NCBI GenBank assembly: GCA_017408485.1
Contig: JAFQUM010000014.1
Span: 62,001-126,000 of the forward strand
DNA: 64,000 nucleotides
Direction of reading: 5' to 3'
Origin: Clostridia bacterium
Lineage (GTDB): Bacteria; Bacillota; Clostridia; Oscillospirales; Butyricicoccaceae
In this document: positions 3,017 through 7,344 of the stretch, piece by piece
Position numbering within the stretch: the stretch's first letter is position 1
How the letters are laid out: each line of letters starts with the position of its first letter
Translations under genes and position numbers: made by a program
The notes under the pieces: generated by a model
What the model was told of the DNA's origin: nothing
What the model saw: only the letters and a program-made list of their open reading frames with translations
Databases searched by the model: none

Positions 3017-5161
3017 CTATTTTTTCTTGATGATAAGGGTAATGGCAACACCCGCACCGATACCGAGGATAAATGTAATTGCCGCGGCGGCAATTACTAC
3101 GGGCAGAGAATAGCTAAGCACCTTTTCTGCCGTTGTCAGCTTGTCGGAGCTGTCGTTGGGAGTCAGCGCTCCATCGGGGGAGAGAACCTCGTTTGTGCCC
3201 TCTTCGTCGCTGAAGGTCTTGCCGCAGACCGAGCAGATGTAATGCTCGCCGCTCTTGGCAAGTATATGGTCTCCACTGTCGGAAACACCTGAGAAGGCAT
3301 TGACCTTTTCGGTCATTTCAAAGCTTGTGGGCGATAGGCAAGAAGCAAAGGCATTTTGACCGCCCTGCTGATTGGGACGGGTATTGCCATTCATATCGGG
3401 AATGGTTGTGCCGTCGGGCATCTGGGGACGCTGATTGGGATCAAAGGTGCCGTCGGGCATCTGGGGAAGAGTTGTCCCGTCGGGCATGGTGCCTTGCTGA
3501 TTTCTGTCACCGCGGTTTCCGCCACCGAAGAAATCACCGAATCCGCCGCCGCCAAAGCCGCCGCCCATTCCGCCTACAGCATTTCCGCTATAGCACTGCT
3601 GTGCCGAGTCGGAAAACGCGCTAACCGTGGCTATATCATAAACGCCATTGCGTTCTGTGCCCGTAACATTGCCGCCAACATAGACATTATAGCTGCCGCC
3701 TATCTGCAAGGCGGGACAGGAGATGACTGCACCCTGATAACTGCGTATTTTTGTTCCCGCTACCTCGTCCTTGTCGGGGTCATAGGCGAAGACCATATTT
3801 CCGTCTTTGTCGGTGATTATGACCGCCTCATCCGCACTTTGCGAGGAGGAGAAGCGGAGATTCATAGTCGCTTGAGCTGAGTCGGAGTCATCGTCAGCCT
3901 TTGCCCAATCCATAGTCGAGCCAAAGGAAGCCACAGTGCCGCCGTTTATATATGAGCCAAAATCGGAATCCATTCCCGAGTCGGCGCGGGGGTTTGCCAT
4001 AGAAATGACCGTGCCGCCGTTGATGACAAGATAGCCGTTAGAGTCGATTCCGTCACCCTCAGCGCCGAGACCTGCAAGTATATGCACCTCGCCGCCGTTT
4101 ATCTGTGCAACAGAAACTCCGTCCTCGTTGACATTGATTCCGTCATTGTCGGAAAATATGTTGATATTACCGCCGTTTATGCCAAGATGCAGCTCGGTGT
4201 CAAGACCCTCATAGCCTGAGGTGATGTTCAGCACACCCGTACCCTTGCTTTCACCGTTGATGGTCATAGACATATAGGAATAAAACGCGCCATCGGTCTT
4301 GCGTTGCTTTTTCTGTACGGGAATGGCAGAAGTGTCGTTTTCATCCTTCAGCTTGGTGCGAAGCATACGATAAACATTTTCGCCGCTGAAATTATTTGTG
4401 GTGCCGTCGGCAATGATGACCCTTGCGCCCGCATCGGTCAGGTCGACGGATTTTGAATAAGCCTCTCTGTCCTCCCAGGTATTGTCACATTCATAAACAC
4501 TGTAGAAGACCAAAGCGGGAGCAACTGTGCAGGTCACATCTACGCCATTTAAAACAAGTGTGACCTTTTTGCTCTCATCTGCAAAAACATCGTCGCTGTC
4601 ACCCAAGTCTATCCAGATCTGTCCGTGCCAGGTGCCTTCAAGAATATATATTCCCGCTTTTGTAATGTGAAGCACCGCGTTATTATATGCCTCCTCGGGG
4701 GTATGCATCATATCCTCGGGCACCGAATTGCCCTCTACGGGCAGGGTGGCAAAGATATATTTTGCATACTCGGCGCAGGTGTAGTAATAGCACCATTCCT
4801 GCTCACCGTCGTAGCTTTGACGCTTAAAGCCGCTTGTATCAAGCTTGGGGAAGTAATAAATATCGTGAGCAATATACACATCACCCTCAGGCTTTGTTCC
4901 TGTGTAATACTCGGCGGGGGCATTTTTGACCTCATCGTGAGCAATGCCGGGGTCAGCGTGCCAGGTGTAGTCGAACTCCTTGATCGCACTGCCGTCGATC
5001 ATTGCCGAGTGGGTATAGCTGCCGTCGGTGTTTTGGGTACTGCTCAGCTTGATGGTGTGGGCATCGGTGTAGCTGCCTTCTGCCGCAAATGCAGCGGGGG
5101 CAATAGCCAAAAGCATACAAGCACAGATGCACATTGCAAGAAAACGAATCATTCTTTTCAT
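3017..5161 (-). CDS. Secreted carbohydrate-binding beta-helix protein (Cthe_2159-like), membrane-anchored
   Basis: 714 residues from ATG 5161, which has GGAAAGGAAG 9 bases upstream; the longer frame to 5206 has no better site. Residues 1-24 form a signal peptide ending AAFAAEG. The middle carries right-handed beta-helix turns (LHLGINGGNINIFSDNDG, INGGEVHILAGLGAEGDG, LVINGGTVIS) as in the Cthe_2159 carbohydrate-binding family (PF14262). A Gly/Pro-rich stretch with PDGTT repeats follows, then a CSVCGKTF pair of cysteines. A final hydrophobic helix plus IIKKK suggests a C-terminal membrane anchor. The likely role is binding plant polysaccharide at the cell surface. It stands alone, divergent from the ECF sigma gene. 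Confidence 0.8.
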   Translation of the reverse strand: MKRMIRFLAMCICACMLLAIAPAAFAAEGSYTDAHTIKLSSTQNTDGSYTHSAMIDGSAIKEFDYTWHADPGIAHDEVKNAPAEYYTGTKPEGDVYIAHDIYYFPKLDTSGFKRQSYDGEQEWCYYYTCAEYAKYIFATLPVEGNSVPEDMMHTPEEAYNNAVLHITKAGIYILEGTWHGQIWIDLGDSDDVFADESKKVTLVLNGVDVTCTVAPALVFYSVYECDNTWEDREAYSKSVDLTDAGARVIIADGTTNNFSGENVYRMLRTKLKDENDTSAIPVQKKQRKTDGAFYSYMSMTINGESKGTGVLNITSGYEGLDTELHLGINGGNINIFSDNDGINVNEDGVSVAQINGGEVHILAGLGAEGDGIDSNGYLVINGGTVISMANPRADSGMDSDFGSYINGGTVASFGSTMDWAKADDDSDSAQATMNLRFSSSQSADEAVIITDKDGNMVFAYDPDKDEVAGTKIRSYQGAVISCPALQIGGSYNVYVGGNVTGTERNGVYDIATVSAFSDSAQQCYSGNAVGGMGGGFGGGGFGDFFGGGNRGDRNQQGTMPDGTTLPQMPDGTFDPNQRPQMPDGTTIPDMNGNTRPNQQGGQNAFASCLSPTSFEMTEKVNAFSGVSDSGDHILAKSGEHYICSVCGKTFSDEEGTNEVLSPDGALTPNDSSDKLTTAEKVLSYSLPVVIAAAAITFILGIGAGVAITLIIKKK

Positions 5162-5377
5162 TAGGAAAAACTTCCTTTCCATAATCTTGCCATTATTATG
5201 CACCATAATTTTTACGAAAATTAATAGATTTATTAAACAGTTTGTGAATAACTGTCGCTTTTGCAGGGTGACGGCAGGGATATTTTATGATAAAATAAAA
5301 ATAGTTATCAAGATTTATCCCGCTTTTGCGACTATATAGGTAAGAGCTCTTAACACTTGAGTGAGAGGGGGAAAAGT

Positions 5378-5935
5378 ATGGACGATAAGCAAATAATTGA
5401 GCTGTATTTCAGCCGAGATGAAGCCGCTATCGATGAAACCGACAAAAAATACGGCAAGCTTTGCTATGGTGTAGCCTATAATCTTTTAAGAGATCTGCAA
5501 GACTCCGAGGAGTGTCTCAACGACACCTATCTTGCGGCGTGGAACAAGATGCCGCCCGAAAACCCCAATGCCCTCAGCGCCTTTTTGGTGCGTATAGTAC
5601 GCAATATATCCATAAGTATTTTCCGTGCTAAGCGGGCGAAGAAGCGCTATAGCGGCTTTGAGACTTTGCTTTCAGAGCTTGACGAGTGCATTCCGTCACC
5701 AAGCAATACCGAAAACGAGGTCGAGGGTAGGGAGCTTTCCCGTATCGTGGACGATTGGCTGCAAGGTCAGTTTGACAGCGATTGTGCAATATTCGTCCGC
5801 AGATATTTCTACGGCGAAACGGTCACAAAAATTGCCGATGATTTTGGCTTGACCCCCGATAAAATGTCACAACGCTTGTTTGCGCTTCGCAAAAAGCTTA
5901 AAGCCTATTTGCAAAAGGAGGGCATAAATCTATGA
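5378..5935 (+). CDS. ECF-type RNA polymerase sigma factor
   Basis: 185 residues from ATG 5378, behind GAGAGGGGG at 6 bases. Region 2 (YGVAYNLLRDLQDSEECLND...AFLVRIVRNISI) binds core enzyme and the -10 element. Region 4 (VTKIADDFGLTPDKMSQRL) is the -35-binding helix-turn-helix. Residues between carry the usual acidic linker. The stop overlaps the start of the serpin gene as ATGA, so the two are translationally coupled. In this family the partner encoded directly downstream is normally the anti-sigma factor, which makes the serpin the candidate regulator. Confidence 0.9.
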   Translation: MDDKQIIELYFSRDEAAIDETDKKYGKLCYGVAYNLLRDLQDSEECLNDTYLAAWNKMPPENPNALSAFLVRIVRNISISIFRAKRAKKRYSGFETLLSELDECIPSPSNTENEVEGRELSRIVDDWLQGQFDSDCAIFVRRYFYGETVTKIADDFGLTPDKMSQRLFALRKKLKAYLQKEGINL

Positions 5936-7344
5936 AAAGTGAAAAACTGTATGATGCAATAACCAATATAAGTGAAGAAAACATCACCCGTTGCGACAAC
6001 GCGGTGAAAAAGATGAAAAAGCCGTCAAAAAAGCTGTGGATATCCTGGGTTGCCGCAATGCTGGTGGTAGCTATCGTGGTCGGTGTGGTGCTTTGGCCCG
6101 GCAAGGATTCCATAGTCATCTCTGCAAATGCCATTTTTGAGGCGGAGTATCCCGATAGAAGCGATCTTTCATACCGTCCGGTCAATAATGAACTTAAAGA
6201 GTGCCTTTCCCCCTTCTTTAATGATTTTATAGCAAGATCGCTAACGGGGGCGGGAGATGAAAATGTTCTTGTATCGCCTCTCTCTGTTTATATGGCAATG
6301 TGTATATTGGCAGAATCCACAAGCGGTGAAAGCAGAGAGCAGATACTTGATGTGCTGGGATATGCAGATAAAGAGATATTGGGTCTTTCCCAAATGGAGC
6401 TTTTGAGAACAAGCGCCAAGACCATTTTTAACTCTGTGCATAACACCCATAAAAGTGCGACCCGTCTGCTTGCCAACTCGGTGTGGCTTGATAAATCCGT
6501 AGAGTTTAACTCTTCTACAATGAAAACCATTGCCGATAACTTTTATACATCTTCATTCAGCGGCAATTTAGGCAGCGATGAGATGAATAAAGTGGCGCAA
6601 TCGTGGCTCAACGAAAATACCAAGAATATTTTAAGTGAGCAGATCAAAGATATCGAGCTTGCCCCCGAAACCCTTTATGCCATAATGTCCACCGTGTATT
6701 TTAAAGGAAGTTGAGACAATGAGTTTAATAAAAGCATGAATACCCAAGGCATATTCCACGGTGCAAAGGGAGATGTACCTGTGGCGTTTATGAATAAAAA
6801 GACTATCCATAACTATTACTGGGGCGAGGGATTTGCGGCAATAAGCTATCGTATGCAGGGCGGAGACAGTATGTGGTTTATTTTGCCCGACGAGGGAGTA
6901 GAGGCAGAGACCCTTTTTAATAGTCAGCAGGTGTTGGAGTTTATGACCCCCGTAAAGAAGACCGCAGAGTCAAAATCCCTTATTGTCAATATGTCAATTC
7001 CCAAGTTTGATGTTGAGTATAATACCGACCTGTCAGACGTGCTGAAACAGATGGGGATCACCGACGTGTTTGATCCTTTAAAGTCGGATATGTCACCGGT
7101 GCTGAAGGGTGGGGCTTTGCCAAGCGGATACTCACTCTATGCCACCGAAGTGAAGCACGGAGTTCGTGTAAGAATTGACGAAAAGGGTTGCGAAGGCGCG
7201 GCATATACAATTATACCCGCAGCGCCCGGTGCATCCGAGCCGCCCGACGATGAGGTAGACTTTATCGTTGACCGCCCCTTCATCTTTGCGGTAACCGACA
7301 GCAATGGCCTTCCAATATTTGCCGGAATCGTAAATATGCCATAA
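5932..7344 (+). pseudogene. Membrane-anchored serpin in the anti-sigma position, interrupted by one in-frame TGA
   Basis: One frame of 470 codons is split by TGA at 6712-6714 (codon 261). Both halves are plainly one serpin: the first ends TVYFKGS and the second resumes DNEFNKS, so the stop replaces the Trp of the invariant YFKG-x-W motif. Residues 1-35 are basic and cytoplasmic, about 36-53 form a membrane helix, and the serpin fold lies outside the cell. The C-terminal part has the hinge DEKGCEGAAYT and the closing VDRPFIFAV...IFAGIVNMP. Counting from the hinge puts the cleaved bond near small residues (PAAPGAS), suggesting an elastase-like target; this is inference. The gene overlaps the sigma factor by ATGA. 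A re-initiating ATG exists at 6736, but half-serpins should not fold as inhibitors. It may be a recent mutation, a read-through product or an assembly error. Confidence 0.85.

What the first reader, a model, noticed from the sequence alone, without database searches (positions are those of the whole stretch)
5932..7344. A serpin sits in the anti-sigma position of an ECF sigma operon
The gene coupled by ATGA to an ECF sigma factor normally encodes its anti-sigma factor. Here the partner has a short basic cytoplasmic tail, one membrane helix and an extracellular serpin. A serpin changes shape irreversibly on protease attack, so it could act as a one-shot sensor of outside proteases: cleavage outside, tail release inside, sigma freed. 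Serpins are known in gut Clostridia (for example the siropins of Eubacterium siraeum). The protease-sensor idea is inference.
Basis: partly seen in the sequence, partly recalled or inferred. Interest (0 to 1): 0.75.

Follow-up and report, generated by a model that had tools for sequence, protein, structure and literature searches.

The report
Serpin-tipped membrane anti-sigma factor
Many gut bacteria carry a gene switch (an ECF sigma factor) whose membrane-bound inhibitor bears a protease-trapping serpin outside the cell, so attack by a protease could itself switch on the response; the copy in this window is real in layout, but its serpin half is cut by a stop codon.

Summary
The operon is real: an ECF sigma gene (5378-5935) overlaps by ATGA a gene for a short basic tail, one membrane helix and a serpin. 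The architecture is widespread: 73-78 sigma-serpin pairs in gut-type Clostridia. The tail is an anti-sigma domain by genetic evidence: a profile trained only on tails of NON-serpin partners of the same sigma family recognises 73 of 73 serpin tails but 3 of 50 serpins not scored as sigma-linked (2 of those do adjoin a sigma gene). The tail co-evolves with sigma (r 0.68) more than any equal-length piece of the serpin does (at most 0.48). Serpins are also joined to two further tail/sigma types, and move between these and lipoprotein anchors. Hinge and reactive loop look inhibitory, with Ala/Gly/Ser at P1; an xAA motif in the helix fits regulated intramembrane proteolysis. Best reading: an RsiV/RsgI-like sensor with a serpin as ectodomain, probably a one-shot protease sensor. 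Direct sensing is inferred, not shown. No such pair was found in the held literature. Novelty: new variant of a known kind.

The parts
5306..5340 (+). Putative autoregulatory ECF-type promoter: -35-like TATCA (5306-5310), -10-like TTGCGACTATATAGG (5326-5340)
   Evidence: Same motif class lies upstream of sigma-serpin operons: TGCGACT in 22 of 68 vs 0.5 expected, but 4 of 111 for sigmas with other partners. The exact 16-mer TTGCGACTATATAGGT (5326-5341) occurs once in the held genome.
5378..5935 (+). ECF sigma factor, 185 aa
   Evidence: Pfam/NCBIfam; 71 of 149 relatives hold a homologue at E<=1e-20
5932..6036 (+). Cytoplasmic tail (aa 1-35): short anti-sigma domain, motif LYDAITNISEENITRCD + basic stretch
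   Evidence: Score 19.9 with a profile trained on non-serpin partners; 99% of shuffled tails score below 9.6; co-evolves with sigma
6037..6093 (+). Single transmembrane helix (aa 36-54), with VAA (aa 40-42) near its inner end
   Evidence: Hydropathy; predicted helix 37-54, low pLDDT; xAA in the inner half of the helix in 65/72 serpin partners vs 14.2 expected
6124..6153 (+). Juxtamembrane segment (aa 65-74) ANAIFEAEYP, conserved A-x-A....YP
   Evidence: Y73, P74 invariant, A67, A71 >=90%; short strand 67-69 in the model
6250..7341 (+). Serpin domain (aa 107-470), interrupted in this copy at 6712
   Evidence: PF00079 E=1.3e-62 on the read-through translation; AlphaFold2 mean pLDDT 84.4, pTM 0.80; Foldseek hits are serpins
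6712..6714 (+). In-frame TGA stop in place of the invariant serpin Trp261
7180..7245 (+). Hinge and reactive centre loop (aa 417-438), EKGCEGAAYTIIPAAPGASEPP
   Evidence: Inhibitory-type hinge conserved across sigma-linked serpins

Best explanation
A transmembrane anti-sigma factor whose sensor domain is a serpin. The first ~35 residues bind and hold the ECF sigma at the membrane (strong genetic evidence; binding not shown). The ectodomain is a metastable, inhibition-type serpin with Ala/Gly/Ser at P1. When an elastase-like protease from the host or the community cleaves the reactive loop, the loop inserts into sheet A; this disturbs the juxtamembrane A-x-A....YP segment and exposes it to a site-1 protease (inferred). 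A site-2 M50 protease then cuts the membrane helix and ClpXP removes the tail through the xAA motif (inferred from RsgI; motif shown). Free sigma transcribes its own operon (promoter motif shown, autoregulation inferred), replacing the consumed sensor-inhibitor. In this window the stop at codon 261, if real, leaves a tethered tail with an unfoldable serpin fragment: sigma either locked off or released constitutively.
For: 73-78 sigma-serpin pairs, mostly with ATGA overlap. Tail profile trained on non-serpin partners hits 73/73 serpin tails and 3/50 serpins not scored as sigma-linked; two of those 3 adjoin a sigma gene and the third scores only just above threshold. Sigma-tail Mantel r 0.68 (partial 0.57 given serpin), above all 23 equal-length serpin windows (max 0.475); the signal sits in the 20-aa motif (0.70), not the basic part (0.35). 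Serpin also fused to tails of two other ECF types. Serpin domain exchanged with lipoprotein anchors: 27 changes at least. Hinge P12/P10/P8 = A/A/T, P14 C/V, P1 A/G/S, loop length most often that of alpha1-antitrypsin. xAA in the membrane helix 65/72 vs 14.2 expected; ClpXP recognises XAA in RsgI helices after RseP cleavage (PMC12203970). Promoter motif specific to serpin-linked sigmas. M50 proteases in 13/13 relatives. Precedents from papers: RsiV binds lysozyme and becomes a signal-peptidase substrate (PMC6066255); B. breve serpin is protease-induced (PMC8012564); the tengpin N-terminal tail stabilises the native state (PMC8233489).
Against: No binding, cleavage or induction data. Co-inheritance of a tight operon alone produces part of the sigma-tail correlation. 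A-x-A is not unique to sigma-linked forms (48/69 vs 4/12 lipoproteins), so site 1 is unproven. P14 Cys/Val and P9 Tyr/Phe differ from the textbook Thr-Glu-Ala-Ala-Ala hinge. The held window genome (64% complete) shows no M50 protease. The window's own serpin is interrupted and is the most divergent in alignment A3. Lone serpins show almost no copy of the sigma promoter, so no wider anti-protease regulon was seen.
Confidence: 0.62

Rival explanations
1. Anchored effector: the tail is a true anti-sigma, but the serpin is only cargo, a surface protease shield made by its own sigma. The signal is sensed elsewhere (juxtamembrane region, membrane stress or another protein, as PbpP does for RsiP), so serpin cleavage does not release sigma.
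For: The same serpin domain also stands alone as a lipoprotein without a sigma, so it is useful as a plain surface inhibitor; B. thuringiensis RsiP is triggered through a separate sensor PbpP (PMC8844934).
Against: In this sigma family the ectodomain differs from one subfamily to the next while the tail is kept, as expected of sensor domains. Serpins are joined to at least three tail/sigma types.
Confidence: 0.25
2. Ligand-sensing, non-inhibitory serpin: the ectodomain works as a binding module (like hormone-carrier serpins) and releases sigma on binding a small molecule or peptide.
For: P14 Cys/Val and P9 aromatic residues are atypical.
Against: P12, P10 and P8 are almost always A, A and T, and loop length matches alpha1-antitrypsin in just over half; lipoprotein forms have the same loop.
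Confidence: 0.07
3. In the window only: a decaying locus. The stop at Trp261 is fixed and the operon is losing its serpin, keeping at most sigma plus a truncated tethered tail.
For: In-frame TGA; window serpin departs from 21 of 109 near-invariant positions vs median 5 and at most 14 elsewhere; long branch.
Against: No second lesion: the rest of the frame is open to the normal stop. The excess of departures lies before the stop (15/53) rather than after it (6/56). The sigma branch is also long (0.59 vs median 0.29), and A3 holds no close relative, so part of this is lineage divergence. A single wrong consensus base would explain it.
Confidence: 0.45

Closest known systems
RsiV (sigma-V anti-sigma, Bacillus subtilis / Clostridioides difficile)
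   Same: Short N-terminal tail, one membrane helix, ectodomain that meets the offending host enzyme (lysozyme); sigma freed by signal peptidase then site-2 protease (PMC6066255). 8 of 99 non-serpin partners in this sigma family match DUF4179, the RsiV membrane-proximal domain.
   Different: Ectodomain is a serpin; no DUF4179 hit in the serpin partner; tail motif is of another type; trigger untested.
SigI/RsgI sets of Clostridium thermocellum
   Same: Many paralogous sigma/anti-sigma pairs with a common N-terminal anti-sigma part and different ectodomains; RseP cut in the helix; XAA motifs read by ClpXP (PMC12203970).
   Different: SigI is a different sigma group; RsgI ectodomains sense polysaccharides.
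Group T bacterial serpins (siropins, miropin, tengpin, Bifidobacterium serpin)
   Same: Serpin fold and inhibitory-type loop; tengpin and miropin are among the top structural hits; siropins inhibit neutrophil elastase and proteinase 3 (PMC8201313).
   Different: No sigma or anti-sigma link is described in the papers checked. Assignment of these serpins to group T was not tested by tree here.
B. breve serpin with protease-inducible two-component system
   Same: Protease exposure switches on a serpin gene (PMC8012564).
   Different: Sensor is a separate two-component system; here the serpin itself is fused to the regulator.

Membership tests
ECF sigma factor | sigma2 and sigma4 regions only, ~190 aa | tested here: met
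   PF04542 E=1e-9; sigma4 weak but present (PF08281 E=0.0028, below cut-off); NCBIfam sigma70-ECF E=2.2e-18 over aa 18-178
Transmembrane anti-sigma factor | gene directly after sigma, cytoplasmic N-tail, one membrane helix, ectodomain | tested here: met
Transmembrane anti-sigma factor | tail homologous to the tails of other partners of the same sigma family | tested here: met
   cross-trained profile 73/73; window score 19.9 vs threshold 9.6
Transmembrane anti-sigma factor | binds and inhibits its sigma | not testable with these tools
   only indirect: co-evolution r 0.68, partial 0.57
RsiV-like (DUF4179) anti-sigma | DUF4179 membrane-proximal domain | tested here: not met
   no PF13786 match in P0001
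Serpin | serpin fold, PF00079 | tested here: met
   E=1.3e-62 on read-through translation; model and Foldseek
Serpin | complete open reading frame in this genome | tested here: not met
   TGA at 6712-6714
Inhibitory serpin | hinge compatible with loop insertion (small residues at P14, P12, P10, P8) | tested here: met
   window C, G, A, T by the loop register used; family C/V, A, A, T; P14 atypical
Inhibitory serpin | covalent protease complex | not testable with these tools
   needs biochemistry

The most novel reading that the evidence does not exclude
Serpin fusions to three different ECF anti-sigma types suggest the trick was invented more than once.
Probability: 0.5. Interest if true: 0.88.

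Novelty: new variant of a known kind. Interest (0 to 1): 0.72.

Why it matters
Serpins change shape irreversibly, and no prokaryotic use of a serpin as the receptor part of a signalling protein was found in the papers searched. If the mechanism holds, gut Clostridia sense host or microbial elastase-type activity directly through a sigma/anti-sigma pair, which would link proteolysis in the gut to bacterial gene control and give a ready protease biosensor. It also exposes a large, apparently uncharacterised anti-sigma family (tail motif L..AIG.IDD.LI.EA) with swappable ectodomains.

Tried and rejected
(1) Recoding of TGA as Trp: rejected; TGA ends 19/47 long window ORFs including the sigma gene, and the two other same-frame ORF pairs split by TGA in the window were inspected without homology search and looked like unsupported open frames. 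(2) A-x-A as a proven signal peptidase site: only suggestive, since lipoprotein-anchored serpins keep part of it. (3) A wider regulon: the promoter 16-mer is exact only at this operon in the held genome; one 2-mismatch site lies near a gene I take to be mnmE, and lone serpins almost never have the motif. (4) 'Serpin partner arose once in this sigma family': the sigma tree needs 17 changes (at least 6 forced by well-supported branches) vs 57 when shuffled, so clustered but not single. (5) Complex modelling of sigma + tail: the folding tool takes single window or locus chains, so not attempted. (6) Other strains to settle the TGA: the genome-contig scan may leave out near relatives, and the same-genus genomes held are other species. 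(7) Searches of held papers for sigma-serpin links gave nothing relevant. (8) A weak SecE hit on the tail region (E=0.076) was judged a generic basic-tail/helix match.

Full report
OBSERVATION. The sigma gene runs 5378-5935 (+) and reads as an ECF factor. The next gene begins inside its stop codon (ATGA, 5932). Read with TGA as Trp, the partner is 470 aa: a 35-aa basic tail, one helix, a short linker and a serpin (PF00079 E=1.3e-62, aa 107-470). Under the standard code it is not one ORF: an in-frame TGA at 6712-6714 splits it into 260 + 202 aa. The position is Trp261, invariant in 14 and in 46 aligned proteins. TGA is a normal stop here (19 of 47 long window ORFs). The genome is a 64% complete MAG, so one wrong base or a strain variant cannot be excluded. 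The window serpin also departs from 21 of 109 near-invariant positions (median 5, maximum 14 elsewhere). The alignment holds no close relative, however, and the excess lies before the stop (15/53) rather than after it (6/56), so this is weak evidence of decay.

THE PAIR IS COMMON. Of 149 relatives, 71 have a serpin hit; none of the listed relatives' hits has a stop inside. Sigma homologues lie directly upstream of many of them. Adding 80 named loci, nearly all from gut, rumen or faecal MAGs and including the isolates Flavonifractor sp. AGMB03687 and Cuneatibacter sp. NSJ-177, gives 78 serpin frames with a sigma upstream. After removal of duplicates, 73 sigma-serpin pairs stand among 182 sigma-partner pairs; 58 have the -4 overlap.

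THE TAIL IS THE ANTI-SIGMA DOMAIN. The 109 other partners of the same sigma family mostly have the same beginning: L..AIG.IDD.LI.EA, a basic stretch and one helix, followed by unrelated ectodomains, of which 8 of 99 scanned match DUF4179 and one DUF4367. A profile trained on these non-serpin tails alone scores 73 of 73 serpin tails above the 99% level of shuffled tails (window 19.9, threshold 9.6). Only 3 of 50 serpins not scored as sigma-linked pass; two of these (L040, L177) do have a sigma next to them in the other order, and the third (L155, 10.1) is marginal. A further test asked whether the tail follows sigma or the serpin it is fused to. In 64 non-redundant pairs, sigma-tail distance correlation is 0.68, sigma-serpin 0.48, tail-serpin 0.52; partial sigma-tail given serpin 0.57, serpin-tail given sigma 0.30. 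No 35-column window of the serpin reaches the tail (maximum 0.475 of 23), and the signal is in the 20-aa motif (0.70) rather than the basic part (0.35). Operon co-inheritance contributes to all these values; the contrast between tail and serpin is the informative part.

MODULARITY AND REPEATED RECRUITMENT. Serpin labels on the sigma tree are clustered but change at least 17 times (57 when shuffled). On the serpin tree, anchors (type A sigma tail, other sigma tails, lipoprotein, other) need at least 27 changes. Seven loci (L175, L176, L202, L210, L219, L229, L232) join a serpin to a different tail (RYQKANEGIHAPEELK) and a sigma only 20% identical to the window's (L210). Two more (L153, L156) join a separate serpin clade to a third type. 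Some loci carry serpin-sigma-serpin (L164, L181).

HOW IT MAY WORK. Shown: hinge residues P12/P10/P8 are A/A/T, P14 is C or V, P1 is A/G/S in 52 of 63, and loop length in just over half equals alpha1-antitrypsin. This is an insertion-competent, elastase-type loop by sequence. The model is a serpin (mean pLDDT 84.4, pTM 0.80) matching tengpin and miropin among others; it draws the hinge as a strand, which by itself says nothing about the real state. Shown: xAA lies in the inner half of the membrane helix in 65/72 serpin partners (14.2 expected) and 87/105 others (24.2 expected). In RsgI such XAA motifs are read by ClpXP after RseP cuts the helix (PMC12203970). M50 proteases are present in 13 of 13 relatives, though not in the incomplete window genome. 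Shown: an ECF-like promoter (TGTCA-N17-CGACT; TTGCGACTATATAGG in the window at 5326-5340) upstream of serpin-linked sigmas (TGCGACT 22/68 vs 0.5 expected) but rarely of the others (4/111). Inferred: the promoter is used by its own sigma; protease cleavage of the loop disturbs the conserved juxtamembrane segment and admits a site-1 protease. [quoted passage not shown]

COMPARISON AND VERDICT. It works like RsiV and RsgI, but by the features compared it is a member of neither (no DUF4179; different sigma group and ectodomains). No held paper links serpins to sigma/anti-sigma pairs; subscription papers and genome databases were not covered. I rate the architecture and the anti-sigma role of the tail as very likely (about 0.9), direct protease sensing as more likely than not (about 0.6), and the function of this particular broken copy as open.

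Noticed in passing
L164, L181: Serpin-sigma-serpin arrangement: a second serpin lies just upstream of the sigma gene as well as downstream; in L177 the tailed serpin precedes sigma.
   Followed up: partly
L175, L176, L202, L210, L219, L229, L232; L153, L156: Serpins fused to two other kinds of anti-sigma tail next to other ECF sigma factors (20-22% identical to the window's for the two compared, L210 and L153).
   Followed up: partly
loci, e.g. L052, L058, L062, L067, L113: Large anti-sigma family with one tail motif and many ectodomains, most without any Pfam match; each may sense something different.
   Followed up: no
L195, L199, L205, L206, L214, L217, L220, L222, L233, L237, L240: Same serpin clade with short lipoprotein-like N-termini, not next to a sigma of this family; several keep the AYA....YPEM segment.
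   Followed up: partly
window 3017-5206 (-): 729-aa secreted or surface protein divergent from the sigma gene, with a Gly/Asn-rich stretch and a C-terminal membrane helix; possibly a neighbour of interest.
   Followed up: no
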